Assembly (NCBI GenBank): GCA_951799445.1
Contig: OX637296.1
Coordinates: 7,750,001-7,814,000, forward strand
Direction of reading: 5' to 3'
Source of the DNA: Pseudisothecium myosuroides
Lineage: Eukaryota; Streptophyta; Bryopsida; Hypnales; Lembophyllaceae
Length of the DNA stretch: 64,000 bases
The position numbers and the translations under genes are program-made. Below are positions 17,413 to 52,047 of the stretch, one piece after another (positions within the stretch are counted from its first letter, which is position 1; each line of letters begins with the position of its first letter). The notes under the pieces were generated by a model that worked only from the letters and a program-made list of their open reading frames with translations, was not told where the DNA came from and searched no databases.

Positions 17413-17695
17413 TTAACCCCTAAAGTCCCATTGTCCCCTGAGGGGACAAAATGCATCTTGGACAGGTTCCTACAGTCTCAATATTTGTTGTGATTTTCTG
17501 AATATTTTTGTGAAGGTAGAAAAACACATTAGCTTTTTGAAAATATAATTTTCATTTCAATCGATGCCTAGGGGCAAAAGTTATGGCATAAAAAATCCTT
17601 TTTTAGTTCATCGGGCAGAAAAAAACTTTAAATAAAAAAATTGAAAAATTGATTTATAATTTTAAAAAATTGATTATAATTTTACAAACATGGAA

Positions 17696-17951
17696 TGTTA
17701 CGGATCGGCTTGACCAAGAAGTCGATGCTCTACTTAGATTGCATTCAAAGCAAACCAACACTAAATAACCACCAAGTTACAATAATGACAATGAGAATCA
17801 CACTTACACATTGTATCCAAAATCATATTATCTTCATTACACAAAATGTCAAGTGAGGAACAAGCCTCCTCACTTGACTATTAAAGGGAAGGGAGAGGCC
17901 AACTAACTCAACCGTTACAACCGTTCCCTTGTTACGAACGGGTTCGTAACA
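17696..17951 (-). repeat. Chromovirus 3' LTR (256 bp)
   Basis: It starts TGTTACGG and ends CGTAACA on the plus strand, a perfect 7-bp terminal inversion. It differs from the other LTR at five positions by eye alignment with no indels. Confidence 0.93.
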
Positions 17952-17965
17952 TTACCCCCCCTTCT
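17952..17965 (-). promoter_or_regulatory. Polypurine tract
   Basis: The minus strand reads AGAAGGGGGGGTAA directly before the 3' LTR, the expected plus-strand priming site for reverse transcription. Confidence 0.8.
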
Positions 17966-18049
17966 AGGTTGGGGCCCCGGTGCCGTTGGATGGAGTTTAT
18001 GAAAATCAGCAATCGCCTCCGGTGTGTTTTCAAGATTGTCCGCCGGCTC

Positions 18050-21000
18050 CTACGAATTCTCCTCCGGGCCATAGTCCTCCCATGACACCAAGTAGTGGAG
18101 TTTTTTCCAACGACCGAATAAACATGAATCAATAACTTTGTGCACCTCCCACTCCACATCTCCAATTGGGGTAATAATCGGTGGAGGTGGTATGCGGCGA
18201 CGTCCGGGAATGGTATCCTCACGGTATTTTTCAAGTAGAGAAACATGGAAAACATTATGAATACGCAATGTCTTAGGTAGTTTTAACCGGTAAACGAGAT
18301 CGGAGAGTTTAGCTATTATTGAAAACGGTCCAAGAAACTTAGAAGCTAATTTATGAGAGGGCTCTGTAGTTGCAATATTTTCATGGCGCAAGAGGACTTT
18401 GTCACCTGGTTGAAAGGTCGGTTGTAGTTGTACCCCTCGGTCGTAATTTCGCTTAGCTTGTTTCCCCGCAATCAAAATCATAGTTTTGAGTTCCTCATGA
18501 ACTTGTTGTAGATGTCGAACCCGGTCCTCGGCCGCTGGAACAGTGGATGTTGTAGGTATAGAAAACGATAATGCCGGGTGGTAACCGTACGTGACATAGA
18601 ACGGAGAGAACCCTGTTGCCGAATGGCAGGCGTTGTTATAGGCAAATTCGGCTAATGGCAATAGATCCGCCCAATTATCTTGACGCTTTGTCATGAACAT
18701 TCGAAGAAATTGTTCAATTACTTGATTCACCCTCTCCGTTTGGCCATCCCCTTGGGGATGAAAAGCTGTCGTTGGTGATGGCTGGATCTTAAGGAGTTCA
18801 CATAGTCTACGCATAAATTTTGACACAAAAACGGAGCCCCTGTCTGATATGACCTCCTCCGGCATGCCATGATATTTCCATACATTATTTAAATTTAACG
18901 ATACAGTGTCATTGGAGTCAATGGTCTCCTTTGTAGGTACAAAATGAGCTAGTTTAGTATTCTTATCAACAACCACTAGGATAGAGTCATACCCTTTGCT
19001 TTGGGATAGTTTAACGATGAAGTCCGTAGAAACCCGCTTCCATGGAGCATGAGCGGCTGGAACCGGTTGTAGTAGGCCATATCGAGGATGACGTGTTGAT
19101 TTTGACCTCTGGCACAAATCGCACCCATCAATATATTGATGCACATAACGACGAACAGTAGGCCAATAAAAAATTCTAGTTACCAATTCTAAAGTTTTAG
19201 CCCGGCCTTGATGTCCCGCGGCGGGAGCGTCATGCCTCGATCGCAATATTTGTCGCCGAAGTTCGTCATCATTTGGCACATATATCATGTCTTTGAACCG
19301 AAGAATTCCATCTGTGAGGTTGTATTCTTGAAACCGTCGACGGATGTCATGCGGGCTCTTTTTTAATCCCCCTTTTAGAATTGCCAATAGTGGTTGCAAT
19401 GCGGGGTCTTCGTCAATGCATAGTTTTATTTGTTCTAGAATTTGAGCATCGCTCCAAACGGGGTCACAGTCCTCCAATGATGCCAAACGTAGAAGGGGGC
19501 GATTCTCTTCATGTCGGCCTTCCATGAGATCAACCCTTCTTGAGAGGGCATCTGCACGCCCATTTAATGAACCCGGCCGATGTTGGATATCAAAGTCAAA
19601 CGCGGATAAGAATTCTGACCATCGAGCTTGTCTTCTATTTAATTGCTTCGTAGTCATAAAGTACTCCAAATTTTTATGATCCGAAATTACACGGACTTGA
19701 TGAGGTGACCCCTCTAAATACACCCGCCAATCCTGGAAAGCTAAAATAATACTTAGGAGTTCTTTGTCATAAATGTCGTAGTTCTGTTCAGCGGGAGACA
19801 TTTTAGAACTCCTGTATGCACACGGATGTAAGTGACCGTCATCCCCGTGCTGCGAAAGAATTGCACCTGTTGCCATGTCTAACGCATCCGTTTCAACTAT
19901 AAAAGGCCGTGCAAAGTCTGGATGGAATAGTACCGGTGCTTGAAGAAATCTTGATCGTAGGTCGATGAATGCTTGACTTGCTTGTAGGTCCCATTCAAAT
20001 TGTTTGTTCTTTTGAGTTAGAATAGTGAGAGGAATGGTAATCTTGGAATAATCACATATAAATCGGCAGTAAAAATTCGCAAATCCAAGGAAGGCTTGAA
20101 TTTCCTTAACCGAGGTTGGAACGGGCCAATCTTTAATAGTTTGCACCTTGTCTGGACACATTTCAAGTCCTTTAGCCGAGACAATCATTCCCAAAAATTC
20201 AACGGAATGCTGATGGAATTGACATTTGGATTCTTTAGCATATAGTCCATGTTCTTGTAATCTTTGTAATACGTCCCTTACCACTTGCCGATGCTCTTCA
20301 AGATTCTTTGAAAAAATTAAGATGTCATCCAAGTATATAACAACAGATATGTCCAAAAGGTCCTTAAAAATATCTTGCATTAACGATTGAAATTGTGCAG
20401 GGGCATTAGTCAACCCAAACGGCATAACTAAATATTCAAATAATCCGTACCGCGTTTTAAAAGCCGTTTTGAATTCGTGGCCCACAGCCATACGAAGTCG
20501 ATGATAGGCTTGTCGAATGTCCAATTTGGAGAAAATCGTAGCCCCTACCAACCGGTCAGTGAGCTCTGGGATAAGGGGTAGGGGATAGCGGTTCTGCACG
20601 GTAACCTTGTTGAGATTCCGGTAATCTATATAAACCCGAATTGAACCGTCCTTTTTCCGAGCGAACACAATAGGTGCTGAAACAGGACACTTGGATCTTC
20701 GAATCCAGCCCTTGCCTAAATTCTCGTCTAATTACCTCCGTAGCTCCTCCAGCTCCACCGGGGACATTGGCTGCAACCTAGTGTTACGGGGCTCTTGTCC
20801 TTCTTTAAATTCAATCTTCATATCACAAGTCCTATGGGCTGGCAACTCATTGGATGCCACCTCACTGAAAGCTGCTTTTAAATCATGATATTCTTTTGGA
20901 ATAGAAGAAGATAGTGGAGTATCTACCTTGGAAATCTCGAGTGCATAAATTTCTGCCTCCTTTGCCGAAAGATGAAAAGCTGCCTCAAAAACCAATGCAT

Positions 21001-21795
21001 GCTTTGGAGCAATTAATTTTGAAAGTTGTTTTTCTGCCTTGAAATTCAACTCATGTTGTCCTTGAGCTCGCACCTAAAAATTCCGTCCTTGATTGGAATC
21101 CCCCGTGCCCAAAACCTCCATATTTGTGAATTGGAAACTTCCGTGGCACTCCATAGCTTTGCAATTTCCTTTTTCTCCTTGCACCTCATGCCCCATGCAC
21201 CAAGCCTGACAATATGGGGAATCAAATACCACACTTCTTTGAGACCACCGAATAGTCGGGTCATGACGGATTAACCATGGAATGCCTAAAATGCATGGAT
21301 ACTTGCCTGTATTCGTGACATCTGCTACCAATCTTTCACGATGATCTCCAATGATAACCTCTACAATAGCCTCGTGGGTTATAAGCCCGGAGCTGATCAT
21401 TCGGCCATCAATCACCCTAACTTCACGCGGCACCGGCTTTAGTTGCAGCTCCGCATTACATTGTTCCGCAAACTTGGGATGCATGAATATTCCTGTGGCT
21501 CCCGAATCCACTAACGTGAGACCTGGGACGGAATTGAGCTGTGCATCCAACGTCACATGCGCACTAGGGTCAATAGTGGCACGTAAGCACAACGGATCTA
21601 ATCCGCAATTTACCTCCTTCGAAACCTCGACATCCGTATTCGACCATATGTTACTCCATTGTAAATTCTACCAAGCGGCCGACTCAAGAGGCCGCTCCAC
21701 CATATTGCCCACCTTCCTTGTTGCGTCCAACGTGGGTGTCTTGTGGATGATGGCAGCGGCAGTTTGCACAGTGCCCGGGTACTGAAAATTTTCCT
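18050..21795 (-). pseudogene. Chromovirus pol (PR-RT-RNaseH-IN-chromodomain), broken
   Basis: One reading frame carries all pol domains. Protease: VDSGATG near 21508. Reverse transcriptase: VMPFGLTNAP and IYLDDILIFSK (YLDD near 20335). RNase H: VETDALDMATGAILSQ. Integrase: an HHCC zinc finger ending CDLCQRSK, then STDFIVKL, SDRGSVF and FHPQGDGQTERVNQ. Chromodomain: EWEVHKVIDS to LVSWEDYGPEEN near 18140-18052. The frame is interrupted by stops at 21668-21670, 21074-21076, 20732-20734 and 18050-18052; the last replaces the conserved tryptophan after PEEN/S in the chromodomain, and 20732 is a TAA where the family has a sense codon. Pol lies in the -1 frame relative to gag. Normally these proteins copy RNA to DNA and integrate it; this copy cannot make the full polyprotein. 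Confidence 0.9.
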
Positions 21796-22884
21796 TCAGT
21801 CCCGGGCTTTCTCTTTTCCCAAAGAGGTGCCTTCCGCTTCAATGGTGGCAGAGATCGACGAGGGCTTTGAGGGATTCGTGGGGCAACGCGATCGAATATG
21901 ACCTATTCCACCGCAACCCCAACAACGTCCTTGGCGTTGATATTCTTGCCGTTTCACCGCCGTTTTTGCCAAGGCTGTAGAAGGAGTACGCATCGCTCCA
22001 AGCTCCATCGGCACCGGCCCGGAGGTATTCGAGTTAGATTGTACCTTCCCCAGTGCATCTCGTGGCAAAGTTGTTGGGGAGCGGAAACTTGAAGTCTCAA
22101 AAAGTGAACGGCGGTTTTGACACCGACCCCATAATCTCTCATCGATTCGGGATGACATTGCCATCCAATCTTGTAGCCGGCGTGGTTGAGTCTCCGCCGT
22201 CGCCACCGAATCCAAAATCTCATGCTTGAGTCCTCCACGAAAGCGAGCTACCAAACTGGATTCATTCCAATCGAGTAGCGCCGCGCATTCATTAAACATA
22301 GAAATATAATTCGCGACTGACCCAGTTTGTCGAAGCTTCCCAATGCGATCCTCCGCATTGCTCCGACGGTCAATATCCCCATATACGGAAATCACGGACT
22401 CCCGAAAAGCTTGGTAATCGCCCAATAACTCGTGATCACGCTCCTCGTCCAAAGCTTGGAGAAGAGGCATAGCCCAATTTTGTGCCGCTCCAGTCATATA
22501 CGAAAGCGCATAAGCTACCTTATCTGCATTAGAGCTATAAGTGCGCGGTTTACCTCGAAATACAAGACGGAGTTGTGCAAACCACCGGTAAACTTCATTT
22601 CCCTTCTTTCCGGAAAATTTTTCCGGTTCCGCTACCTTCGATTCTTTGAGTTCCACATTGGATTCCGCACACCTCCCTCCTAACACCCCTCCGCTATTGG
22701 AGACGGGAGAGACCACCGGTCATGGTCCTTGCGCTGCTCGACTCGAAATCTCTTGTATCAATTGAGGAAGTGTGGCTTGGAACACACTTTGGATTTGTTG
22801 TTGGATGAAGGCCGCCCACTCCGACCCCATCCCATCCGGCATCAATTCTTCCCCCGGTTGGACCACCGGTGGTACTTGATCCAT
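21796..22884 (-). pseudogene. Chromovirus gag, broken
   Basis: The frame opens at ATG 22884 and is cut by TGA at 22720-22722, then continues to TGA at 21796. A retrotransposon capsid region (YRWFAQLRLVF, WAMPLLQAL, YISMFNECAALLDW) is followed by one CCHC zinc knuckle, CWGCGGIGHIRSRC, near 21890. Gag packages element RNA. The single early stop leaves most of the capsid frame open. Confidence 0.85.
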
Positions 22885-23017
22885 CGAAGGAGATTAGGGT
22901 TCCGAATTAAGTAATCCTACAAACTCTCTCATGGTAACGGCCGTTGTCCAAAGCCATCAAAGCACCTTCAACATGGGAATCCGAATTAGAGCATGGACTT
23001 TGCATGACTTGACATTA

Positions 23018-23273
23018 TGTTACGGATCGGCTTGACCAAGAAGTCGATGCTCTACTTAGATTTCATTCAAAGCAAACCAACACTAAATCACCACCAAGTT
23101 ACAATAATGACAATGAGAATCACACTTACACATTGTATCCAAAACCATATTATCTTCATTACACAAAATGTCAAGTGAGGAACAAGCCTCCTCACTTGAC
23201 TATTAAAGGGAAGGGAGAGGCCAACTAACCCAACCGTTACAACCGTTCCCTTGTTACGAACGGGTTCGTAATA
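23018..23273 (-). repeat. Chromovirus 5' LTR (256 bp)
   Basis: This is the partner of the 17696-17951 LTR. Its outer end has CGTAATA in place of CGTAACA, so one terminal base has mutated. Five differences in 256 positions suggest a fairly recent insertion compared with the surrounding decayed repeats. Confidence 0.92.
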
Positions 23274-23545
23274 TGGAAAGCTTTGATTTATTCCATTTGG
23301 ATTTGTTATGTGAAAGTTATGGACAATCTTGTTTTTCAGGCAATTAGAGCATCTTCTTGAAAAAATAACTTGTAGAATTCATTTTTCACTTGAGCAATTT
23401 TTACGATTTTTCAAAAAAAAAAGTTTCACAAGTTTAAGATTTCATACTAAAAAAATCTCACCATTATGATTAGTGTATTTCAATTCCATCTTAGTTATTA
23501 ACAATTTAGTTTTTCCTTCAATCTTGAGAACCTACTTCTACTTAA

Positions 23546-24280
23546 GGGTGAATGCAAGAAACACCTGCCGATTTTGTTGCGTTTTTACTATACTCATGAT
23601 TTTTCTTCTGGAATACTATAAAATTAGAAAAATCATTTTTAAAAAACAAATAAAATATGGCTAACGTATACACTTTTAAGATGAAGGTAACCACCAAAGG
23701 AAATGCATAGAAAAATTCTTTAAGCTAGAGAACTAGAAAAGTGCCAAATCTCAAGAAAATGGATATTTTGATGTATAAATTAGTTAAAAATAGGAAACAG
23801 AAGTAAATATATAAAATAAAAATTGGCCATTTGTAACAACTCTATGGAGATGGTCATTCAGCCAAAAAAACTCCATAATAATATTTTATGTGTTTCAAAA
23901 TGCAAGCAGAAAGAAGCACACTTTGTAGACTTCCACACCATATACAATTAATTATTTTTTATACTTCCTTTAAACGGTAGCTACAAGTCTACTAGAAGAC
24001 CATGCCCTCCAAATTTCAACTCAACATTTGTTTTCTGGATACTAAATAGTACTAAAAACCTCCAAATTGACAAGTGTGACATAAAATTGGGGCTATTTTT
24101 GGATAGTAAACTATTTTTGAAAATTACCAAAAAATTATGTAAGGTGTATACTGATAGTTATGAGTACCTTGCATATAAATCTTGAATCATTTACAGCCAA
24201 AACGCAAAACTTATAACCAAAAAACGAATCAAAACGCGAGGTATGACGCAAAATAGTACAGGTGTTTCTTGCATTCACCC
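23546..24280. mobile_element. Element K: 735-bp TTAA element with GGG ends
   Basis: TTAA at 23542-23545 and 24281-24284 bound a perfect inverted repeat of 22 bp that begins GGGTGAATGCAAGAAACACC. The host A1 has a single TTAA at this point in the other family A copies, so a 4-bp TTAA duplication is shown directly. The interior is AT-rich and non-coding. Its ends start GGG rather than CCC, so it is a separate family. Confidence 0.85.
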
Positions 24281-24728
24281 TTAAGAATTTTTTAATGAGT
24301 GAAAACTAAGTGTTTTTTTGTTTTCTTAATTTTCTAGACTCTCAACTCAAATCTTTATTATATAAAATTAGAAATTCAAAATCAATAGAGCAAAAAATTT
24401 AAGTTATGAAGGTTCAAAGCCAAACAATGTAGTTGAGCAAGGTGCAAAAAAACTTGTTTCTTTCACTTTAAATGCAAATATCTTGCAATCTACCTTGTCA
24501 AAGTTTTTGAAATTTCTTCCACACATTTTTACACTAGTATAGTACAATTGTATAAGATCCTATGGTTAGATATGCAAAAAGAAAATTTTAAAATTTTAAA
24601 ATTTCTTTTTACCATAGAAATGGTAGTTTTGAGTGTTTTTTGATGGAAAAGAGGCCTAGGAACTTTAGAGGTTAATAGCAAGAAAATATACAACAAAGCC
24701 AAATGAGAAACTATGTACAAATACATAC

Positions 24729-25745: not shown

Positions 25746-25762
25746 GAAGCATCCAGCCTTAA

Positions 25763-25982
25763 CCCTTAAATGACGGGCTCATAGTCGTGGAAATCATCTG
25801 TTTTGTCACCATGTGGATTGTTGGATTAAAATAATGCAAAAATACTCATTGGAAGTCAAACTACTGTAGATGATCTTCCCTTTCCCCACAAAATTTGGAG
25901 GATGAATAGTCGCACTTCTATCCTACACAGGAGATTCTCTTGTCATTCATCGGCCTCAAAACGTCTGCCGCATCGTTAAGGG
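25763..25982 (+). mobile_element. Family E TTAA MITE, copy E1 (220 bp)
   Basis: TTAA at 25759-25762 and 25983-25986 flanks CCCTTAAATGACGGGC and a right end CATCGTTAAGGG. It aligns along its length with 46550-46771 and, inverted, with the two split copies at 26477-28560 and 44576-46545. Non-coding. Confidence 0.85.
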
Positions 25983-26129
25983 TTAAATAGAGAGAAGAGG
26001 CACATAGATAAGAAGAAAACTAATAGAGGCCGTATCAAAAGGGAGATCCAAACTGAGATTGAAGCGGAGCAAAGCTAAAGCTTGGCAAATTGGGGGCAGA
26101 AGGTGGCGAATAGTATTGAACAAGATTAT

Positions 26130-26300: not shown

Positions 26301-26632
26301 TAATTGTGCATTAGTAAAAAAGTGTTGCTTTTAGATGTCTTTACCTTTGTCATCGATCTTGTATTCGGTGAGCTCTGTACCTCCATATATGTGGGAAACT
26401 TGACATTGCCAGAATCTATGAAAAATGGTAAAATTCAAATTGCAACGACACTTTGGTAAAACTCTTTTACAATTAACTATGTAACGTTCTTGTGGACACT
26501 AAGTGCCCAATGGATGACAAAGAATTCTTCTTTATAAGACAGATGTGTAGATATTCATCTTTGGAATTTTGTTCAAAACGGGAATCTCGGACAATAGTTT
26601 GACCTCCCATGAATGCTTTTATTTATTTTTAA

Positions 26633-28493
26633 CCCCTAAAGTTCTATGACTATGTTTTCACCGAAAACATTAACCCCTAAAGGACCAAGGCCTTTTTTCT
26701 GCCAAAAAACACTGAAAACTGCCATTTCTATAGCAAAGAATATAAAAAATTGAAAATTGTTTTTTTTTCACATCCAACCGTAGGATCTTACAGCTAACTA
26801 GTATAAGAATGTATGGAATTTTTTTTAGAATTTTTGACCGCACAGATTGCAAGATATTTGCATTTAAAGTGAAAAAAACAAGTTTTTCAGCACATTGCGG
26901 GACTAGATTTTTTGACTTTAAACATTTTTAACTTAAAATTTTTGCACTACAGAGTTTTGAGCTTTTATTTTTTATAGTGGAGAATTGAGTTGAGAGTCTA
27001 GAAAAAAAATAATATTAAAAAAAAACTTAATTATCATTCTTAACAAAATTGTTAAGTAGATGTAGGTACAAGATAGAAGGAAAATCTAAAACATTCATAT
27101 ATTTTAGATGGAATTAAAATGCACTAATCCCAATGGTGAGATTGTTCTAACAAGTAAATCAGACCATCCAAAAAAAAAAATTTGAAAAATTTGAAAAATT
27201 GCATTCAGAAATGAATCCAAAAGTTATTTTTTTCAAGAAGATGCTTTAACTGCCCGAAAAACAAGAATGTCCATAACTTTCTCATAACATATCCAAATGA
27301 AATGAATCAAAGCTTTCCGGAAAGCCAAAAATATAATCTATGAGAAAAAAAATATTAAAAAAAAAATTCAAATTTTTGTCCCTTTTTTTTTTGCTGCCCG
27401 AGCTGCCCCCCATAGCCTGTTTTGAGCTTATATGGCCATAACTTTTTTTCCCGGGCACCGATTGTGAAAAAAGTTATATTCCCTTGAAGCTAATCAGTTT
27501 TTCTACCTCCAAAAAAAGTTTCAAAAAATCAGAAGAAAATTTCAGCCCGTAGGTACCTGCCCGAAAATGCATTTGTCCCCCGTAGGGACAATGGTCCTTT
27601 AGGGGTTAAAAAACTGCCATTTTTAGTACAAGTACCAAATTTTTGAAAAAAAACTTTTTTGACACATGTAACCGTAGGATCTTATAGTAAACTAGTTTTA
27701 GAAGATGTGGAAAAATTCAGAATTTTCCACCATGCGCCGGATTGGAAGATATTAGCATTTGAATTGGCAAAAATCCTTTTTTTGTTCCTGCAAAAAGCAA
27801 GGCAGCTACACTTCACAAGGTCACATTTGTATGAAAAAATGTCCAAAATGGTGGTACTTCTTTGAATTATTTTTCCTATACAAGTTGGCTACATGCTCAA
27901 AAAATTTCAAATCATTTGGAATTGTACAACATATAGGAAAAAAATAGTAAGTAGAGAGAAGTAGAGAATGATCCAAAATACTAAAATGTTAAGAATTTAA
28001 ATATGGAATTGAAAAATGTCAATCCCAATGGTTGGATTTGTTGTAATAAACAACCTAAATCCTATGATTTTTTTTTTTCAAAAAATATTAAAAATTGAGT
28101 TAAATAAACAACTTCAAAGTTTATTTTAGAGTAGAGAATCCGTAACCGCCCGCAAACTAAAAAACCTCATAACTTTTTATTCATTGGTCGAAATGGAATG
28201 ATTTAAAGCTTTCCACGTATATATAACTCTAGAAAACCAATTTCAAATTTTTATTTTTGAAAAAAATGATTTTTTCAGATCTGCCCGGACTACCTACCCG
28301 GTGAAATAAGTAACGTATTAGGCTATAACTTTGGACTCCTATTTCGAAATGTCATGAAATTTAGTGCACATGAAAGATATTCCTTGTCCCCACCTTCTAT
28401 TAAAATTTCAGCTTAAAATATGAAAATCTCTAGTCACACGTACCTACCCAAAATCGCTATGTTGCTAAAAATAGCAGGCTGGTCCTTTAGGGG
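26633..28493 (+). mobile_element. Family B TTAA element B1, split by A2
   Basis: TTAA at 26629-26632 and 28494-28497. The left end CCCCTAAAGTTCTATGAC and right end GCTGGTCCTTTAGGGG match B2 (38926-39852). A2 is inserted at 26670. Removing A2 and one TTAA leaves 925 bp, against 927 bp for B2, and the flanking sequence CACCRAAAA...AACTGCC is restored to the exact B2 spacing. Non-coding. Confidence 0.87.
26674..27605 (+). mobile_element. Family A TTAA element A2 (932 bp)
   Basis: A near-complete reference copy: TTAA at 26670-26673 and 27606-27609, left end CCCCTAAAGGACCAAGG, right end CAATGGTCCTTTAGGGG, giving a 14-bp terminal inversion CCCCTAAAGGACCA. A subterminal GTCCC...GGGAC hairpin lies inside the right end. 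Non-coding. Confidence 0.9.
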
Positions 28494-28843
28494 TTAAGTA
28501 GATGATTCATATTGCATCCAAAAGGATGAGTTCTGTGGTGACCATCTCGTCTTTATAGGGTTAAATAGCCTTAAAAGGTCTCCTAAGCACCGTTTGTATA
28601 TACATAGTCCTTGAACAAAGCATGTTGCAATGCAACAAGCACGGTCATGTAGTTAAGGTTTAATTTAGAAGATGTTCGGATGTCACTAGAGTTTATCAAG
28701 AATGAATGAATGAAAAATGTGTGGATGAAAACATGAAGGATGAAATTGTAACATGGTTTGCATTTAATATAAGAGAGACCACAACCTTGTTAAATTTACA
28801 TCGTATTTTGAAGTACAACTTGGTATCCATGTGCACTATATAC

Positions 28844-32476: not shown

Positions 32477-33970
32477 CCCCTAAAAGACCAAGCGTTCAAA
32501 TTTTGAACAATGAATGAACGCAAACACATCCCAAGCACTCAAAAATGTGTTCTTTCATCCATTAATTTTTTTGAAGATTCTTGTAAGTATTTCTTTAACA
32601 TTTGTATAGCATAAACTTTAAAGAATTTGCTTTGCAAATATTCTATTATTCAGTAGGTATTGGTAGGTCTAGCCTCAAAAATACCTCATAACTTTTTTAG
32701 TTCAAGAAATGACTCTTCAAAAATGACTTGAATAAAAAATATAATAAAAATCTTCAAAAATCATTATGATTAGAATTTAAAATTTTGAACTTAAAAGAAA
32801 AAAATTCTTGTGAAAATAAAAAAAAATCAATCTACAAGCAATTGAAAAGGAATTTTCAAATTTTGGCTTCAAATTTTACTGAAAAATGTTAATTTGTGTA
32901 CAAGTTGATTTAATCATATTGATATGATCTATTTATCATATTTTACAACTATTGTTTGAAAGTCATCATTAACCCCTAAAATACCAAAGTCCCCTTGGGG
33001 GACACTTGAGATTTCGGGCAGGCCCGTGTGGCCTCAAATTTTGACCTGATTTTTGAAAACTTTTTTTGAAGATAGGGAATTACATTAGCTTTCTAAAAAT
33101 AATTTTTTTTCCAATCGGTGCTCGGGAGCAAAAGTTATGCCATCATAAAGCAAAAATGCAATTTGTTGGGCAGAAAAAATAATAATAATAATAATTTTTA
33201 ATCTTTTAATTTTTTTTTTCTCGAAGATCATGTTTTTGTCGACATTTGAAGCTTTGATTCATTTTATTTGGACTAATAATGAGAAAGTTATGGACAATCA
33301 TGTTTTTTGGGCAATTTAAGCATCTTCTTCAAAAAACAACTTATAGAATTCGTTTTTGAATGCAATTTTCAAATTTTTTCAATATTTTTTTTGATGAGGT
33401 CAAGTTTGTTTGCAAGAACAATCCCACCGTTGGAATTATGGTGTTTTAATTCCATCTAAGAGCTATTAACAATTTAGTGTTTCGATCAATTTTGGTCCTA
33501 CTTCTACTTAGCAATTTTTTTATATGTAAAAATCAAGTTTTGATATGCTAAAATTTTATTTTCCCGACTCTCAACTCAAATTTTCAACATAAAAAATTTT
33601 AACTTTATGGTGTGTAGTGCAAAAAAAATCCACAAATGGCCGTCAAAGTCCTCTGAAATTGCAGGAAACAATTCAAAAAAAGTTTTTTTTCCACCTTGAA
33701 TGCTAATATCTTCCAATTGGAATGGTCAAATTTCTTGAAATTTTTACCACATGATCTAAGATAAGTGAAGTACAAGATCCTATGGTTAGATTTTTTTTTA
33801 AATGTTCTTTTTGGTTTCTTGAGTGATCGCAGCATAAATGGCAGTTTTCAATGGTTCTAGAGCCAAAAAATGCCTTGGTATTTTAGGAGTTAAATTATTG
33901 TTCTAATTTGCATTTTATGATACATCTTTACAATTTTAGAAATTTGGACTATCCCTTGTTCCTTTAGGGG
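32477..33970 (+). mobile_element. Family C TTAA element, split by A4
   Basis: TTAA at 32473-32476 and 33971-33974 flank CCCCTAAAAGACCAAG and CTTGTTCCTTTAGGGG, an imperfect 16-bp terminal inversion. The interior differs from A and B. Without A4 and one TTAA it is 573 bp. Non-coding. Confidence 0.75.
32973..33889 (-). mobile_element. Family A element A4 (917 bp)
   Basis: TTAA at 32969-32972 and 33890-33893. The ends CCCCTAAAATACCAAAG and CTTGGTATTTTAGGAG are diverged but paired. It includes a 'GGGGGACACTTGAG' subterminal block and family A interior in reverse. It is the innermost of a three-level nest. Non-coding. Confidence 0.82.
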
Positions 33971-35074: not shown

Positions 35075-35078
35075 TTAA

Positions 35079-37661: not shown

Positions 37662-37758
37662 ACCATTCCGTGCGGGGGAAGGCAGCCTAGCAATCTGCTA
37701 CTGAATGTTATGTGATCTTATTGTTAATCTGTTTGAGTATATCTTTACAAAATTTTAA

Positions 37759-38674
37759 CCCCTAATGGCCCAAGGTCTTTTGTCTGCCAAAAAAACACTA
37801 ATAACTGCCATTTCTATAGCAAAAAGTAAAGAAAAATTTAAAAATGTTTTTTTTTAATATTTGACCATAGGATCTTATACCTAACTAGTATGAGAATGTA
37901 TGGAAAAAATTTCCAGAATTTTCGACCGTACAAATTGCAAGATATCTGCGTTTAAAGTGAAAAAAACAAGTTTTTTAGCACATTCCAGGACTAGATTTTT
38001 CGATTTTGAACATTTTTAACTTTAAATTTTTGCTCTACAGAGTTTTGAGCTTTAAATCTTTATAGTGGAGAATTGAATTGAGAGTCTAGGAAAAAAAATT
38101 CAAAAAAAATTAGATTTCATTCCTAAAAGAATTGTTAAGTAGAAGTAGGTACAAGATAGAAGGAAAATCTAAAAGATTAATATCTTTTAAATGGAATTAA
38201 AATGCACTAATCCCAATGGTGAGATTATTCTAGCAAGTAACTTGAACCATGTGGAATTTTAATTCTTTTAATTGCAAAAACTTGACATTCAAAAATGAAT
38301 CCTACAAGTTATTTTTTCAAGAAGATGCTCTAATTGCCCAAAAAACAAGATTGTCCATAAATTTCTCATAACAAATCCAAATGGAATGAATCAAAGCTTT
38401 CTAGATAGACAAAAATATAATCTATGAGAAAAAAAATTCAAAAAAAAATTCAAATTTTTGAATATTTTTTTGTTGCCCCCTCTCCCTTGTTTTGAGCTTA
38501 TTTGGACATAACTTTTGTTCCCGGACATCGATTGAAAAAAAATTAATAATCCAGCAAAGCTTATCAGTTTTTCTATCTTCAAAAAAATATTCAAAAGATC
38601 ACGACTAAAATCAGCCCATAGATACTTGCCCAAAATCCCATTTGTCCACAGAAGAGACAATGGACCTTTAGGGG
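37759..38674 (+). mobile_element. Family A element A5 (916 bp)
   Basis: TTAA at 37755-37758 and 38675-38678; ends CCCCTAATGGCCCAAGG and CAATGGACCTTTAGGGG. The interior blocks are in family order. Non-coding. Confidence 0.87.
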
Positions 38675-38678
38675 TTAA

Positions 38679-40335
38679 AGAGCAAAACCCTACTGATTGC
38701 AAGATTGTAATGCTTAAACTTCAAAAATTAGGTGAAATTTTTTAGCACTTCTTAGAGGTAAAGTTTTGTCTTTCAATATTTTTAGAAAAAATACGTGTGC
38801 CCCAATATTTGTGCATTTTGGTTTGCATGTTGGAAATTGGGTTGAAAACACATGAAATTTTTTTTAACAAAGAATAATCCTATATTCCTCTTAAAAGTAA
38901 ATTTCTAAATGTATGGTGAAATTAACCCCTAAAGTTCCTTGACTATGTTCTCACCAAAAATGCTCCAAAACTGCCATTTCTAGTACAAGTACTAAAATTT
39001 TGAAAAATATCATTTTTGGACACATGTAACCATAGGATCTTGTAGTACTCTGATTTGAAAATATGTAGAAAAAATTTCAAAAAATTTCTATCGTGTAGAT
39101 TGGAAGATATTAGCATTTAAAGTGGCAAAAGTCTTTTTTTGGGCCCTGCAAAAAAACGGGCAGCTGCACTTCACAAGGTCAAATTATTATGAAAAAATTT
39201 CCAAAATGGTTGTGCTTCTTTGGATTCATTCTTCAGGGCAAGTTGGCTACATGCTTGAACATTTTCAGACTATTTGGAATTGTACAACATATAGAAAAAA
39301 AATAGCAAGTAGAAAGAAGTAGAGAATGGTTCAAAACACTAAATTGTTAAGACGTCAATTATGGAATTGAAAAATGCCAATCCCACTGGTTGCAATGTTG
39401 TAATAAACAATCTACATCCTACAATTTTATTTTTTTTGAAAAATATTGAAAATTGAGTGAAATAAACGACTTCAAAGTTTATTTTAGAGTAGACAATCCA
39501 TAACTACCCAAAAACTAAAATTCTTCATAACGTTTGACTCATTGATCAGAATGGAATGATTCAAAGTTTTCCACGTATATAAAAAATCTAATAAACCAAT
39601 TTCAAAATTTTATTTTTGAAAAAAGTGATTTTTTTTTATCTGCCCGGACTGCCCGAGTTGAGAAACAAACAACATATTAGGCCATAACTTTTGACTCGTA
39701 TTTTCAAATGTCATGAAATTTGGTGCATATGAAAGATATTCCTCGTCTCCACCTTCTTTAAAAAATTCAGCCCAAAATATGCAAATCTCCAGTCACAGGT
39801 ACTTGACCAAAATTTCTATGTTGCCAAAAAACGCATGTTGGTCCTTTAGGAGTTAAGATTTGTCAATCCTAATGGTGAAAATGTTCTAATAAGTAACACA
39901 TATCCAATGTATTTTTATTTATTTGAAAATTCTTCTAATTGAGGTAAAAAAAAAAACTTGTAAAATAAAACTATGTTTTAATTTCTTCATTGCCTATAAA
40001 AAAAAAGTATCCATAACTTTCATCTCATTAATTTGAAGATGATGATATAATTTTTTTGGTACAAGAGTTTGTCAATCCAATCAAATGAAAAATTAATAAT
40101 TTCTATAATTAATAGAAATGTATGTTTTTAGTTGCCCACTTTGACATTTGACATCACATAAGTCATTATAACTTTGTCAATATTATTGGAATGACATGAA
40201 ACAAAGTTTCACATGTAGAGCATGATGATACGGAATTACCATTAAAAAATTCTAAAAAAATTCTAAAATTTGAATTCAAAAGAGCCTACCCAAGTTCTCA
40301 AAAAGCCCAAAGTGGGCTCTTTAAAACTTTAGGGA
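38679..40335 (+). mobile_element. Relic of an old family A-like element around B2
   Basis: 38679-38921 (GATTGCAAGATTGTAATGC...) and 39857-40335 ('CCTAATGGTGAAAATGTTCT', 'CCATAACTTTCATCTCATTA', ending AAACTTTAGGGA before TTAA at 40336) follow the family A order. B2 is inserted at TTAA between them, and A5 abuts the left, so the left end is displaced or lost. Divergence is high. Confidence 0.5.
38926..39852 (+). mobile_element. Family B element B2 (927 bp)
   Basis: TTAA at 38922-38925 and 39853-39856; left end CCCCTAAAGTTCCTTGAC, right end TTGGTCCTTTAGGAG. It provides the uninterrupted reference for B1. Non-coding. Confidence 0.87.
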
Positions 40336-41247: not shown

Positions 41248-41252
41248 CGCAT

Positions 41253-44321: not shown

Positions 44322-44729
44322 AGTGGCACATTTGGGGGGAACCCTCTTTAAGTTGGAGATTCAATTGAAAGAACTCCAAAGCTCTAAGTTGATATCCTAT
44401 GGACTAGGTAATATGAAAGGAGAGCATCGTTAGAATGTCGTTTCTTATAATGAGACTCTACTTTCATAGTACAGGATATATCTCCAATAGTTGAATCTTG
44501 ATTAATCATGCTCAATCAAGGGTCTAAAAGAAAGACTTTACAATGCTAAAGTAGTTGAAGAGAGGGTCAAATTAACCATGTAAGGATGTTGCGGACCAGA
44601 GTAGTCCGATGGATGATAGAAAATCCTTCTATGTAAGACAAAAGCGCATATGTTCATCCTTAGACTTTTGTGTGAAAAATGAAGTCTTGCACAATAGTTT
44701 GACTTCCAATGAGTGCATTTGTTTTTTAA

Positions 44730-45661
44730 CCCCTAAAGGCCCAAGGCCTTTTTCTGCCAAAAAACACTCAAAACTGCCATTTCTATAGCAAAGTATAAAA
44801 AATATTTAAAAATATTTTTTTTGAACATCTAACCATAGGATCTTACACCTAACTAGTATGAGAATGTATGGAAAAATTTTCAGAATTTTTGACCGCACAG
44901 ATTGCAAGAAATCTGCGTTTAAAGTGAAAAAAACAAGTTTTTCAGCACATTGCGGGGCTAGATTTTTTGGCTTTAAACATTTTTAACTTAAAATTTTTGC
45001 ACTACAGCGTTTTGAGCTTTAAATCTTTATTGTAGAGAATTGGGTTGAGAGTCTAGGAAAAAAGAAAATTCAAAAAAACTTAATTATCATTCTTAAAAAA
45101 ATTGTTAAGTAGAAGTAGGTACAAGATAGAAGGAAAATCTAAAATATTCATATTTTTTAGATGGAATTAAAATGCACTAATCCAAATGGTGAGATTGTTC
45201 TAGCAAGTAAATTAAACCACGTAAAAAAGAAAAATTTGAAAAATTTGAAAAATTGCATTCAGAAATGAATCCTACAAGTTATTTTTTTCAAGAAGATGCT
45301 ATAACTGCCCGAAAAACAAGAATATCCATAACTTTCTCATAACAAATCCAAATGAAATGAATTAAAGCTTTCCAGATAGGCAAAAATATAATCTACAAGA
45401 AAAAAAATATTTAAAAAAAAAATTCAAATTTTTGTCCATTTTTTTTTGGCTGCCCAGGCTGCCCGCCGTCCCCTGTTTTGAGCTTTTTTGGTCATAACTA
45501 TTGTTCCCGGGCACCGATTGTGAAAAAAATTATATTCCCACAAAGCTTATCAGTTATTCTATCTTCAAAAAAAGTTTCAAAAAATCAGGACAAAATTTCA
45601 GCCCGTAGGTACCTGCCCGAAATCCCATTTGTCCCCCGAAGGGACAATGGGCCTTTAGGGG
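44730..45661 (+). mobile_element. Family A element A6 (932 bp)
   Basis: TTAA at 44726-44729 and 45662-45665; ends CCCCTAAAGGCCCAAGG and CAATGGGCCTTTAGGGG. The right end keeps the GTCCCCCGAAGGGAC hairpin. It is the same length as A2. Non-coding. Confidence 0.9.
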
Positions 45662-45665
45662 TTAA

Positions 45666-46478
45666 AACCCTAAAGTCCCAAGAGTCCCCTCAGAGGGCTC
45701 TTGAAGGTTTGGGTACCTATGATCTCAATTTTTGACATGGTTTTTTGAAACTTTTTGTGGAGATGAGGTGTCTGAAGAGCTTTACGAGTACATAATTTAT
45801 TTTCAAATTCAACTAATGGTTGACAAGTTACAACCATTTGGGGGAAAATGGGGGAGAGGAGGTAGCACATGCTTGTTGAATCTCATTGACTTTCACTAGA
45901 GTTGCTGGAATGGGCAAGGACCACTACAAAAAGGGGCTCCAAGTGCAAATTCTAATCCACATTAGGGGGTAGCTACTACCGTAGTGGATAACTGCTAGAT
46001 AGGAGGCTTGGAAATACTGTACATAATTAGCAAGTTCAATTTAAATTAATTAAAAAAAAGTGCTGAATTTTTTTGCTAATTTACAAATAAATGTAAAGAT
46101 GGCTTGCCACTAAAAAGTATAGAAATTCCATTGAGTCAAATACCAATTCACCAATTTGACCATCTCCCATTAAGAAAAAAATTTAACCTCAAAGATTGTA
46201 GTGCAAAAAAATTCAACAAACAACAATCAAAGTCATCTAAAATTCTCAAGTACAACAAAAAAAAACTAGTATTTTCACTTTGAATGCAAATATCTTTCAA
46301 TCTATATGGTCAAACTTCATTAAAAAAAAACTTTCTACATGATCTAATACGAGTTAAGTACAAGATCCTATAGTTACACTCTCAAGAAGTCCATCTTGTA
46401 AACTTTTTCGATCAACGCAATTGAAATGGTAGTTTTGAGTGTTTTTTGTATGAAAAAATGCCTTGGGGACTTTAGGGG
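45666..46478 (-). mobile_element. Family A element A7, internally deleted (~813 bp)
   Basis: It shares the TTAA at 45662-45665 with A6 and has its own at 46479-46482. It begins AACCCTAAAGTCCC (two extra A) and ends CTTGGGGACTTTAGGGG. The middle (about 45780-46170) is diverged or shortened. A6 probably jumped into the TTAA flanking A7, or the reverse. Confidence 0.68.
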
Positions 46479-46549
46479 TTAAGTAGATGATTTATCCTAT
46501 ATCCAAAAGGATGATTTCTATGGTGACCAGCTCATCTCTACAAAGTTAA

Positions 46550-46771
46550 CCCTTAAACGATGGGCTCATAACCGTGGAAATCATTTATTTTGTCACCGTA
46601 TGAATTGTTTGATTAAAATAATGCAAAAGCACTCATTTGGAAGTCAAACTGCTATAGATGATCTTCCCTTTTCTCACAAAATTTGGAGGATAAATAGTTG
46701 CACTTCTGTCCTGCACGAAGAGATTCTTTGTCATTCATCGGTCGGAAAACATCTTCTATGGCATTTATGGG
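46550..46771 (+). mobile_element. Family E copy E4 (222 bp)
   Basis: TTAA at 46546-46549 and 46772-46775; the left end CCCTTAAACGATGGGC and right end CATTTATGGG. It is clearly the sister of E1. It has landed in the TTAA that flanks E3. Confidence 0.85.
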
Positions 46772-46807
46772 TTAAATAGGTTTGAGTGTGCGCAGACTTC
46801 GTTTTAA

Positions 46808-47736
46808 TCCCTAAAGGACCAAGGCCTTTTTTCTGGCAAAAAACACTCAAAACTGCCATATCTACAGCAAAGAGTAAAAAAAAATTGAAAATTGTTTTTT
46901 TTTCACATCTAACCGTAGGATCTTACACCTAACTAGTATGAGAGTGTGTGGAAAAAATTTCAGAATTTTTGACCGCATAGATTGCAAGATATCTGCGTTT
47001 AAAGTGGAAAAAACAAGTTTTTCAGCACATTGCGGGACTAGATTTTTTTACTTTGAACATTTTTAACTTAAAATTTTTGCACTACACATTTTTTAGCTTT
47101 AAATCTTTATAGTGGAGAATTGAGTTGAGAGTCTAGGAAAAAAAACTCAAAAAAACTTAATTATCATTCTTAAAAAAATTGTTAAGTAGAAGTAGGTACG
47201 AGATAGAAGGAAAATCTAAAATATTCATATACTTTAGATGGAATTAAAATTCACTAATTCCAACGGTGAGATTGTTCTAGCAAGTAAATCAGACCATGTA
47301 AAAAAACAAAATTTGAAAAATTAAAAAAATTGCATTCAGAAATGAGTCCTACAAGTTATTTTTTTCAAGAAAATGCTCTAACTACCCGAAAAACAAGAAT
47401 GTCCATAACTTTCTCATAACAAATCCAAATGAAATGAATCAAAGCTTTCCAAATAGACAAAAATATAATCTATGAGAAAAAAAAATTCAAAAAAAAATTT
47501 CAAATTTTTGTCTATATTTTTTTGCTGTTTGGGCTGCCCCTAGTCCCTTGTTTTGAGCTTATTTGGTCATAACTTTTGTTCCTAGACACCAATTGTGAAA
47601 AAAATTATATTCCCACAAAGCTTATCAGTTTTTCTATCTCCAAAAAAAGTTTCAAAAAATCACAACAAAATTTCAGCCCGTAGGTACCTGCTCGAAAACG
47701 CATTTGTCCCCCGAAGGGACAATGGACCTTTAAGGG
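46808..47736 (+). mobile_element. Family A element A8 (929 bp)
   Basis: TTAA at 46804-46807 and 47737-47740; ends TCCCTAAAGGACCAAGG and CAATGGACCTTTAAGGG. Each end has one change from consensus. Non-coding. Confidence 0.87.
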
Positions 47737-47740
47737 TTAA

Positions 47741-48816: not shown

Positions 48817-49449
48817 TACTCTTACTTGTAAGGTAACTACACCTAATTTTGGCATGTGTGTAAAATTGATCCCTATGTATTCTTGCCTAAAATGTACAAC
48901 CTCTAACATGAGAAACTGTGAATTTTCAGAGTGCTAAAATAGCTTCTCCAAGGTGCTTGGTAATAGGCATGTTTGGTAATAGGCATGTTTACCTGATCTT
49001 AGTATCCCTTCTACACGCAATGCTATTGTCGCCATGCTACAGAAGTCTAGGTGCCTCATTTTACCATGTTTTTTTATTTTTTATTTTTCCGTAGGCTTCA
49101 CAGCTGGGTGGCTCAGAGACTGCAGCCTCAGGCAAATCATCTCACTGCAGATTGAATGGTTCCTTCACAGTGGAGTTACTTGATCATGCCAAAGAAACCA
49201 AAATGTGGTATAACTATGCGCTCATTTGCAGAATTGACAGAAACATGCCATTTGAGAGAGTCAACTGGTGGACTTCCGTAGTTTGGTGTTTTGTTAAAAC
49301 ATTGCACCTTCCCAACCAAGAGTCAAGAAGGGCAGACTTTCGCATGCCCCCGCGAAGTCAGCGAAGGTACAAAGACATTTACAAGATTCAGCAAAGTATC
49401 TTCTCATATTGGCAAGCATAAGATTCATCAATCACTCAACCCCTAAAGC
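48817..49449. other. Intergenic DNA, no gene seen
   Basis: A plus-strand frame at 49152-49421 has ordinary composition but no recognised motif and no convincing splice partners. Otherwise nothing supportable. Confidence 0.4.
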
Positions 49450-50740
49450 TGAAAACACCCCAAAAAAACATCAATATAAGCAAATTCAGCATAGTTGGAG
49501 GCACCTTTTTTAAGAAAAAAATATTTTTGTAGCATTTGCAAATGAATATCATGAATTTTCAAATAAAAAAAAGAATTTTTGGATAAGATAGGTAATTATC
49601 ATGAATTTTCAAAGTGGAAGCTCCCTAAATCACTAAAACTGTCACATATTGTAAGTTGGTTAACCCCTAAAGGACCGGCATGCGTTTTTTGGCCGTATAG
49701 AAATTTTGGGCAGGTCCGTGTGACTAGAGATTTCCATATTTCAAGCTGAAATTTTAATAGAAGGTGGGCGCGAGGAATATCTTTCATATACACTAAATTT
49801 CAGGACATTTGGAAATAGGAGTCAAAAGTTATGACCAAATATGTTACTTTTTTTCGTAATTGGGCAGTCCGGGCAGCAAGAAAAATTTGGCAAAAATTTG
49901 ATTTTTTTTTTTTTTAATATTTTTTTCTTGTAGATTATATTTTTGTCTATCTGAAAAGCTTTGATTCATTTCATTTGGATTTGTTATGAGAGAGTTATGG
50001 ACATTCTTGTTTTTTGGGCAGTTAGAGCATCTTCTTGAAAAAATAAACTTGTAGGTTTCATTTCTAAATGCTATTTTTGCAATTTAAAAAATAAATAAAA
50101 ATTCTCATGGTTTAGTTTACTTGCTAGAACAATCTCACCATTGGGATTAGTGTATTTTAATTCCATCTAAAATATATTAATGTTTTAGATTTTCCTTCTA
50201 TCTCGTACCTACTTCTACTTAATAATTTTTTTAGGAATGATAATTAAGTTTTTTTGAATATTTTTTTTCCCCCCAGACTCTCAACTCAATTCTCCACTAT
50301 AAAGATTTAAAGCACAAAACTCTATAGTGCAAAAATTTTAAGTGAAAAATGTTTAAAGTCAAAAAATCTAGTCCCGCAATGTGCTGAAATACTTGTTTTT
50401 TCCACTTTAAACGCAGATATCTTGCAATCTGAGTGGTCAAAAATTCTGAAATTTTTTCCACACATTCTCATACTAGTTAGGTGTAAGATCCTATGGTTAG
50501 ATGTGCAAAAAAAACATTTTTCATTTTTTTTTACTCCTTGCTATAGAAATGGCAGTTTTGATGTTTTTTTGGCAGAAAAAAGGCCTTGGGCCTTTAGGGG
50601 TTAAAAAACCGAAGTCTAAAAAATAAGCAATCAACCAATCGCAATTAAGTATAGAAACGGTTTAATTGCACTTTGGGGGACACTTCCAATAGAAGTCTAC
50701 TTGTTAGGAATGGATAAACCGACAGTTTTGGATGTTTTCA
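49450..50740 (+). mobile_element. Family F MITE, copy F2, split by A9
   Basis: It starts TGAAAACACCCCAAAA and ends TTTTGGATGTTTTCA. The left part shares 'ATTCAGCATAGTTGGAGGCA' with F1. A9 is inserted at TTAA 49661; without it, about 351 bp remain, near the length of F1. Confidence 0.62.
49665..50600 (-). mobile_element. A/B chimeric TTAA element A9 (936 bp)
   Basis: TTAA at 49661-49664 and 50601-50604. The first ~200 bases are the family B right end in reverse (CCCCTAAAGGACCGGC, then AAGTTATGACCAAATATGTT). From about 49900 on it is family A in reverse, ending CCTTGGGCCTTTAGGGG. It is thus a recombinant subfamily. Non-coding. Confidence 0.8.
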
Positions 50741-51121
50741 CCTTAATTGAAATTGAGAACCAAATGAATCTTTGAAATGTATGGAAATCTGAATTTGCCA
50801 AGGCAAACTATTGTATTGGATGTTGAATCGAGCTAGGAATAGTTCCATCATGTTATAATGCAAATTGTCCAATTTTTAGGAAATAAAACTAAATCCCATG
50901 ATGTACTCTTAATTAGAATTTGACAAGGCAAATTGTTGTATTGGATATTGCATCAAACTATGAATAGTTGCATCGTGACAAGATGCAAATTGTCCAATTT
51001 TTAGTAAGAAAACCTAAACCCAACAATGTATTTTATAGCCTACTATACGAGGCAATATATTCTAAATCAAATACTCCACAATACAATTCATTGAAGCATG
51101 TGAGGTTAGGCGAAGGTATAT
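50741..51121. other. Intergenic DNA with a short local duplication
   Basis: Two similar ~110-bp segments (about 50795-50895 and 50920-51015) share 'GCAAATTGTCCAATTTTTAG' and 'TTGTATTGGATRTTG' blocks. No gene. Confidence 0.5.
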
Positions 51122-51125
51122 TTAA

Positions 51126-52043
51126 CCCCTAAAGTTCTAAGGCTTATTTTCTACCAAAAGACACTCAAAACTGCCGTTTCTATAGCAAAGAGTAAAAAAA
51201 AAATTTAATTGTTTTTTTCACATCTAATCGTAAGATCTTACACCTAACTAGTATTAAAAAGTGTGGAAAAAATTTCAGAATTTTTGACCGCACAGATTGC
51301 AAGATATTTGCGTTTAAAGTGGAAAAAACAAGTTTTTCAGCACATTGCGGGACTGGATTTTTTGACTTTGAACATTTTTAACTTAAATTTTTTGCACTAC
51401 AGAGTTTTGAGCTTTAAATCTTTATAGTGGAGAATTGAATTGAGAGTCTAGGAAAAAAAAAGAAATTCAAAAAAACTTAATTATCATTCTTCAAAAAATT
51501 GTTAAGTAGAAGTAGGTACAAGATAGAAGGAAAATCTAAAATATTTATATATTTTAGATGGAATTAAAATACACTAATCCCAATGGTGAGATTGTTCTAG
51601 TAAGTAAATTAAACCATGAGAATTTATTTTTTTGAAAAATTGCAAAAATAGCATTCAGAAATGAATCCTACAAGTTATTTTTTTCAAGAAGATGCTCTAA
51701 CTGCCCGAAAAACAAGAATGTCCATAACTTCCTCATAACAAAGTCAAATGAAATGAATCAAAGCTTTCCAGATAGACAAAAATATAATCTATGAGAAAAA
51801 AAATATTTTAAAAAAAAATTCAAAATTTTGCAAATTTTTTTTGCTGCCCCCCGTCCCCATGCATTCCAAGAAATGGCATAACTTCTCGCTTGAAGGTCCG
51901 ATTTCAATTTTTTTTTCTGCCACGTACCTCTCTCAATTCTTCACATTCACGAAAAGTTTCAAAAAATTAGGAGAAAATTTCAGCCCGTAGGTACCTGCCC
52001 CAAGTCCCATTTGTCCCCCGAACGGACAATGGTCCTTTAGGGG
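51126..52043 (+). mobile_element. Family A element A10 (918 bp)
   Basis: TTAA at 51122-51125 and 52044-52047; ends CCCCTAAAGTTCTAAGG and CAATGGTCCTTTAGGGG. The segment 51850-51950 differs from other copies ('GGCATAACTTCTCGCTTGAA'), perhaps a small exchange. Non-coding. Confidence 0.85.
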
Positions 52044-52047
52044 TTAA

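What the first reader, a model, noticed from the sequence alone, without database searches (positions are those of the whole stretch)
17417..52043. piggyBac-like TTAA MITE community in a plant genome
At least six unrelated small families (A, B, C, E, H with CCC ends; K with GGG ends) all sit between TTAA sites. About thirty element ends were inspected and all keep TTAA except the worn A3. TTAA duplication plus CCC termini is diagnostic of piggyBac in animals, fungi and algae. I do not know of an established land-plant piggyBac population, and the families share only termini, which suggests one transposase mobilising many passengers.
Basis: partly seen in the sequence, partly recalled or inferred. 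Interest (0 to 1): 0.9.

Follow-up and report, generated by a model that had tools for sequence, protein, structure and literature searches.

The report
Recently active piggyBac transposons in moss
This moss genome is full of piggyBac-type jumping genes, best known from animals, including nearly identical intact copies and thousands of short derivatives, which suggests recent activity in a land plant.

Summary
The host is a moss (a window gene is 74% identical to Ceratodon purpureus, 63% Sphagnum, 59% Marchantia). Families A, B, C and E sit between TTAA with CC(C) ends. Genome-wide, 8,083 of 9,184 exact copies of the A-type terminal 14-mer follow TTAA. Related empty sites with a single TTAA exist for window elements A33 and B28 and for two transposase-bearing elements. 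116 PF13843 transposase domains were scored of 899 candidates, all over cut-off. Full-length elements carry such termini; two families have 5 and 6 copies on different contigs, with 7 and 3 variable columns. A/B ends match the ends of transposase families F3/F4 over 100-375 bp; E matches F2 over 52 bp: they look like internally deleted derivatives. A/B/C/E-like DNA is 10.8% of eight arbitrary 8-kb samples. Nine own transposase domains group with unnamed environmental proteins, apart from eight animal ones. K is not piggyBac: five copies carry five different 4-bp duplications. Not shown: present activity and seamless excision.

The parts
17413..24675 (-). Family A copy interrupted by a Ty3/gypsy element (about 17695-23274) and by K (23542-24284); right end at 17413, left end at 24675
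   Evidence: blastn of window against itself: A pieces 17413-17595, 23271-23545, 24280-24675; termini
23542..24284 (+). K element, matching TIRs (GGGTGAATGCAAGA...), inserted in the A copy with TTAA duplication; NOT piggyBac (other copies have TAGA, CATC, CCAA, TATT duplications)
25759..25986 (+). Family C MITE, TTAACCCTTAA ends, TTAA both sides
   Evidence: 85% identical to 46546-46775; ends
26629..28497 (+). Family B copy with the A copy 26670-27609 nested in it
   Evidence: five related empty sites (69-73% identical) in L013, L024, L019, four of them with a single TTAA
26670..27609 (+). Family A MITE, 940 bp, perfect 14-bp TIR CCCCTAAAGGACCA
32969..33893 (-). Family A MITE, 925 bp; both ends match F3 (L022) termini (100 bp 84%, 303 bp 73%)
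   Evidence: related empty site L021:9425-9221 (81%) with single TTAA
34425..35078 (+). Family E MITE, 654 bp; left end 85% identical over 52 bp to the 5' end of F2
37755..38678 (+). Family A MITE, 924 bp
38922..39856 (+). Family B MITE; right end 82% identical over 375 bp to the 5' end of F4 (L023)
44726..45665 (+). Family A MITE, 940 bp, perfect 14-bp TIR; genome query
46175..46482 (-). Partial family A-type end
46546..46775 (+). Family C MITE
46804..47740 (+). Family A MITE, 937 bp
49660..50604 (-). A/B hybrid MITE, 945 bp: A-type left end, right end matching F4 over 227 bp at 78%
51122..52047 (+). Family A MITE, 926 bp
61850..62683 (-). Truncated A/B hybrid outside the given range, 96% identical to 49771-50604

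Best explanation
Families A, B, C and E are non-autonomous piggyBac-superfamily MITEs in a moss. A and B derive by internal deletion from transposase families of the F3/F4 type; E probably from the F2 type (one end, 52 bp); the parent of C was not found. Full-length partners (F1-F4 5.4-6.2 kb, F5-F7 5.0-5.4 kb; DDD transposase with a C-terminal Cys/His stretch; CC-starting TIRs) are present in several divergent families, and two of these have spread so recently that their copies are nearly identical. Mechanism: transposase binds the TIR and subterminal DNA of its own element or of a matching MITE, excises it, and inserts it at TTAA, which is duplicated. Shown: TTAA targets and duplication, TIR sharing, subterminal homology, catalytic motifs, near-identical dispersed copies, thousands of termini. 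Inferred: that these transposases move the MITEs, that excision is seamless as in animal piggyBac, and that the system is active today.
For: PF13843 in own genome: 116 of 899 candidates scored, all over cut-off, none in 14 control genomes; 73 of the 116 have no stop inside (hand count of that listing). F1 (L009-L013, 5414-5416 bp, 5 contigs, 7 variable columns) and F2 (L016-L021, 5632 bp, 6 contigs, 3 single-copy differences) have TTAA at both ends, and the about 310-bp flanks of different copies show no similarity at 1e-5. PDB: F1 to piggyBat 9c0f 3.3e-37 and T. ni piggyBac 6x67 1.2e-29; F4 to 6x67 2.2e-29 and 9c0f 5.3e-27. DDD motifs in 9 of 9 examined domains (8 by pattern, the third Asp of the ninth as GIDVVDQ). 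A-type TIR: 9,184 exact 14-mers, reversed control 1; 8,083 with TTAA in front, control 0. A45: 7,987 candidate places, 40 scored, giving 41 full-length matches (itself and 40 at 92-95%) and 3 short ones. Subterminal homology. Empty sites with one TTAA: A33, B28, F2 in L021 and F6 in L027. Tree: own domains apart from named animal ones, 100/99. Host moss.
Against: 1,101 of 9,184 exact TIRs (12%) lack TTAA in front; decayed or truncated copies would explain this but were not examined. In the eight samples 14 of 20 looser matches follow TTAA. Three sets of related sites lack TTAA at the junction or align poorly (A27, A50; F1 in L011), one of five B28 relatives lacks TTAA, and most elements gave no spanning relative (8 of 13; 13 of 16; F7 was not tested). 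L023 and L025 share a left flank; the left and right flanks of L010 and of L011 resemble each other over 44 and 39 bp. No transposition, excision or expression was observed. F7 ends match only 10 of 14, L014 gave only a poor pair, L015 and L028 none. The parent of family C was not found. The Pfam zinc-finger family PF13842 did not match the four frames scanned.
Confidence: 0.93

Rival explanations
1. The MITEs belong to another TTAA- or TWA-duplicating superfamily (Kolobok, PIF/Harbinger, Tc1/mariner) and the piggyBac transposases are unrelated residents.
For: Kolobok also duplicates TTAA (recalled). Family C has no matched transposase element here. Transposases of these superfamilies were not searched for.
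Against: A and B share TIR plus 100-375 bp, and E 52 bp, with transposase-bearing piggyBac elements F3, F4 and F2; empty sites show a 4-bp TTAA duplication.
Confidence: 0.04
2. A recent horizontal transfer or assembly contamination from an animal brought piggyBac into this genome.
For: All nine listed relatives that bear an organism name are from animals.
Against: Transposase hits lie on C1-C11; the window holds plant genes beside the elements; divergent families lie with unnamed environmental proteins on one side of a 100/99 branch and eight named animal ones on the other; elements are nested in repeats of this genome.
Confidence: 0.02
3. One transposase moves all families including K.
For: All but K share CC(C) termini and TTAA.
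Against: K uses other 4-bp sites in four of five copies; A/B match F3/F4 while E matches F2 beyond the TIR.
Confidence: 0.1
4. About K only: K is a MITE of a superfamily with 4-bp duplications of free sequence (perhaps Sola- or Chapaev-like; names recalled), independent of piggyBac.
For: Five copies with both ends found have TTAA, TAGA, CATC, CCAA, TATT, each the same on both sides.
Against: No parent transposase was found; the genome search with K did not complete. Other K-type ends without a found partner (L027, L028, L035, two in L038) were left out of the count. L014 resembles K only over 106 bp (72%) and the terminal 30 bp (90%).
Confidence: 0.85

Closest known systems
piggyBac (IFP2) of Trichoplusia ni, PDB 6x67/6x68
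   Same: Transposase alignable over the catalytic domain (1.2e-29 and 2.2e-29); TTAA target, CC-starting TIR and C-terminal Cys-rich domain (features of piggyBac recalled)
   Different: F1-F4 are 5.4-6.2 kb (PMC10813416 gives 2,472 bp for a well-defined piggyBac); F1/F2 frames of 1056-1091 codons with a long N-terminal part; own lineage in the tree; plant host
piggyBat of bats, PDB 9c0f (called naturally active in PMC12732532, passage)
   Same: Best PDB match of F1 (3.3e-37); an active piggyBac in its native host is the nearest precedent
   Different: Mammal; activity here is inferred only from near-identical copies
piggyBac annotated in other land plants (Ceratopteris repeat table, PMC6890710; table in PMC4438587)
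   Same: Superfamily label, land plants
   Different: There table entries (Ceratopteris: 1,230 fragments, 122 kb); here intact full-length elements, empty sites and thousands of termini. Passages seen only.
PIF/Harbinger (Tourist) and Tc1/mariner (Stowaway) MITEs of plants
   Same: Short inverted-repeat derivatives in high copy number (recalled)
   Different: TWA or TA duplications and other transposases (recalled); here TTAA and PF13843

Membership tests
piggyBac superfamily (A, B, C, E and F1-F7) | Transposase with PF13843 (DDE_Tnp_1_7) | tested here: met
   116 of 116 scored places over cut-off; F1-F4 frames 2.6e-76 to 2.5e-84. The MITEs themselves carry no transposase.
piggyBac superfamily (A, B, C, E and F1-F7) | DDD catalytic residues | tested here: met
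   9 of 9 domains examined by motif; aligned to 9c0f and 6x67. That these Asp are the catalytic ones is recalled.
piggyBac superfamily (A, B, C, E and F1-F7) | C-terminal Cys/His domain | tested here: met
   Seen by eye at the end of 9 of 9 frames printed; PF13842 gave no match in the 4 frames scanned
piggyBac superfamily (A, B, C, E and F1-F7) | TTAA target duplicated on insertion | tested here: met
   8,083 of 9,184 A-type termini genome-wide; empty sites for A33, B28, F2, F6; uninformative for A27, A50, F1 in L011; C and E by ends only
piggyBac superfamily (A, B, C, E and F1-F7) | TIR starting CCY | tested here: met
   CCC in A, B, C, E and F1-F7; single ends altered (46804 TCCC, 33893 CTCC)
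piggyBac superfamily (A, B, C, E and F1-F7) | Seamless excision | not testable with these tools
   needs an excision assay or resequenced individuals
piggyBac superfamily (K) | TTAA target | tested here: not met
   TAGA, CATC, CCAA, TATT in four copies, TTAA in one
Kolobok (K) | TTAA target (recalled as its rule) | tested here: not met
   same five copies; transposase not searched

The most novel reading that the evidence does not exclude
A plant-specific, ancient branch of piggyBac is active today in a moss; it has filled roughly a tenth of the genome with TTAA MITEs and gives a land plant a native transposon that leaves no footprint on excision.
Probability: 0.45. Interest if true: 0.85.

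Novelty: new member of a known kind. Interest (0 to 1): 0.72.

Why it matters
A plant review states that all DNA transposons found in plants leave a footprint, and describes the use of insect piggyBac in rice for footprint-free excision (PMC10905368, passages); a 2025 paper calls piggyBac occasional in plants, naming red algae (PMC12732532, passages). Intact, near-identical, dispersed copies in a moss make native seamless excision in a plant directly testable, offer plant-adapted transposases as tools, and suggest that piggyBac can be a major genome component in a land plant. Insect piggyBac was still untested in Physcomitrella in 2017 (PMC5505980, passages).

Tried and rejected
Plasmid collection search with an A copy: no match. 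tRNA and Rfam scans: nothing. Raw inverted-pair count as proof: rejected, AATT and AAAA score as high. Kolobok for K: considered, dropped when K duplications proved not to be TTAA. No window frame of 100 codons or more was recognised by eye as a transposase of this kind; the seven frames scanned gave none. Literature: 10 of 10 searches used; none listed a paper that I recognised as describing a moss piggyBac population, in a library of open-licence papers only. PMC10619864 holds only the word 'piggybacking'. The GBE paper on piggyBac evolution was not held. Papers seen as passages only: PMC10619864, PMC10794571, PMC6890710, PMC4438587, PMC12660440, PMC10905368, PMC10813416, PMC12732532, PMC5199201, PMC5505980. 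No structure prediction was run. One search also held one entry (x6) that was not an element; it is left out of the counts.

Full report
What was claimed and what is there. The window (G000:C10:7750001-7814000, a 388-Mb assembly in 222 contigs) holds 32 TTAACCC sites against 9.5 +/- 3.3 expected and twelve delimited TTAA-bounded inverted-repeat elements in families A (924-945 bp with the hybrid), B (about 935 bp without its insert), C (228-230 bp) and E (654 bp). A raw count of inverted pairs next to TTAA is not enough, since AATT and AAAA give 25 and 47 pairs against 22; the tests below carry the case. A, B, C, E and K-like DNA covers 19.1% of the window and 6.2% of the 20 fetched transposase loci.

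Host. The gene on the minus strand at 53552-60489 (exons joined by me, approximate) is 74% identical to a Ceratodon purpureus plant synaptotagmin, 63% and 60% to Sphagnum, 59% to Marchantia, 52% to Cryptomeria. A bHLH frame matches the plant bHLH ACT-like model slightly below its cut-off (26.8 against 27.6 bits) and another matches HLH above it. The host is a moss.

Transposase. PF13843 gave 116 scored places of 899 candidates, all over the cut-off, on each of C1-C11, with none in 14 control genomes. By hand count 73 of 116 have no stop in the match. Twenty loci were fetched. They show full-length elements: F1 (5 copies on C2, C3, C4, C9, C10; 5414-5416 bp; TIR TTAACCCCTCAGGGCCGG), F2 (6 copies on C1, C4, C5, C8, C9, C10; 5632 bp; TTAACCCCTAAA), F3 (L022, 5626 bp; TTAACCCCTAAAGGACCA at both ends), F4 (L023 and L025, 6140 and 6159 bp, 98.75% identical; TTAACCCCTAAAGGAC[CT]A), F5 (L026, 5370 bp), F6 (L027, 5098 bp), F7 (L024, 5011 bp, 10 of 14 TIR positions). 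L014 gave only a poor TIR pair, L015 and L028 none. F1 copies differ at 7 of 5416 columns and F2 copies at 3 of 5632; flanks of different copies are unrelated at 1e-5, so these are insertions and not segmental duplications. Taking 3 changes in 6 x 5632 bases and a plant rate of about 7e-9 per site per year (recalled), F2 spread within roughly ten thousand years; indicative only.

Protein evidence. F1 matches piggyBat (9c0f, 3.3e-37) and T. ni piggyBac (6x67, 1.2e-29); F4 matches the same two (2.2e-29 for 6x67, 5.3e-27 for 9c0f). Catalytic Asp motifs are present in 9 of 9 domains and a Cys/His-rich end, judged by eye, in 9 of 9 frames. The closest relatives of F4 are environmental proteins without an organism name (up to 73% identical); among the 107 proteins found, the only one with an organism name is from a butterfly, at 25%. 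For F1, 120 of 495 were listed, and the eight with an organism name are animals. The same database holds Ceratodon, Sphagnum and Marchantia proteins, so their annotated proteomes show no relative of F4 at this sensitivity (the search needs shared 5-residue words); repeat masking before annotation could cause that. In a tree of 38 rows that I chose (9 own domains, 8 of the 9 animal-named proteins, 21 other proteins), the 9 own domains and 15 unnamed ones lie on one side of a 100/99 branch and the 8 animal ones with 6 unnamed on the other.

Link between MITEs and transposase elements. Beyond the TIR, A33 matches F3 at both ends in the right orientation (100 bp at 84%, 303 bp at 73%), B39 matches the F4 5' end over 375 bp at 82%, the A/B hybrid at 49660 matches F4 over 227 bp at 78%, and E matches F2 over 52 bp at 85%, at one end only; an E copy in L035 has the TIR CCCCTAAATGCCCA, near the F2 end CCCCTAAATGTCC. 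This is the anatomy of internal deletion. C has no parent here. F4 itself seems to carry an inserted A-type copy (my reading).

TTAA as target. Of 9,184 exact CCCCTAAAGGACCA in the genome (4,606 + 4,578; reversed control 1 + 0), 8,083 (4,077 + 4,006; control 0) have TTAA in front: 88%. In window plus 20 loci it is 38 of 41 at up to 2 mismatches, in eight arbitrary samples 14 of 20 at up to 3. Joined-flank tests: of 13 window elements, five had a spanning relative. A33 (L021, 81%) shows one TTAA. B28 has five relatives at 69-73%, four with one TTAA. K in its A host has 15, of which 10 show one TTAA. A27 and A50 are uninformative (no TTAA at the junction, or poor alignment). Of 16 transposase-bearing copies, three had one: F2 in L021 (L018 90%, L010 88%) and F6 in L027 (L038 96%) show exactly one TTAA; F1 in L011 has relatives without TTAA at the junction. 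Two of six F2 copies (L016, L019) abut the TTAA of a B- or C-type MITE.

Abundance. The A45 query gave 7,987 candidate places, of which 40 were scored: 41 full-length matches (itself and 40 at 92-95%) and 3 short ones. In eight 8-kb stretches at round coordinates, A/B/C/E-like DNA covers 10.8% and occurs in 5 of 8; reversed controls gave 0 hits. With so few samples I judge that the true share could be several-fold lower or up to about double.

K is different. Its window copy lies between two TTAA inside an A copy. But K relatives at L014:7733-8500, L030:3113-3858, L026:9698-L029:412 and L033:4915-5659 have TAGA, CATC, CCAA and TATT on both sides. Only copies with both ends found are counted; single K-type ends in L027, L028, L035 and L038 are not. 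K therefore makes 4-bp duplications of free sequence and is not piggyBac; its superfamily is unassigned.

Verdict. A, B, C and E are piggyBac-type MITEs (C by ends only); full-length transposase elements with matching ends exist, and two of their families have spread very recently. Piggybac membership is met on each feature tested; seamless excision could not be tested. What is new is the host, the diversity and the scale, not the mechanism. That excision leaves no footprint is an inference from animal piggyBac and is the test that matters most.

Noticed in passing
17695-23274: Ty3/gypsy LTR retrotransposon with 258-bp LTRs 98% identical, gag and pol frames, inserted in an A copy. Described only.
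   Followed up: partly
L013:2572-5742 and L017:2161-5436: F1/F2 transposase frames have 580-617 codons before the PF13843 domain, with a Gly/Arg-rich stretch and a motif shared by eye (GEV.R.F.H.ITG..TY.V.F), and an upstream overlapping frame of 257-281 codons that looks alike in F1 and F2, which suggests a spliced first exon.
   Followed up: no
L023, L025 left flanks: The two F4 copies share the left flank but not the right one at the junction; unexplained.
   Followed up: no
L016, L019: F2 copies sit exactly at the TTAA of existing MITEs (2 of 6); could be chance or a preference.
   Followed up: no
36656-37451: Adjacent long palindromes (187- and 120-nt arms at 93-94%, 74-nt arms at 91%), not assigned to any family.
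   Followed up: no
L016-L021: Each of the three F2 differences is an A in one copy where the other five have G on the transposase strand, as expected if methylated C decays on the other strand.
   Followed up: no
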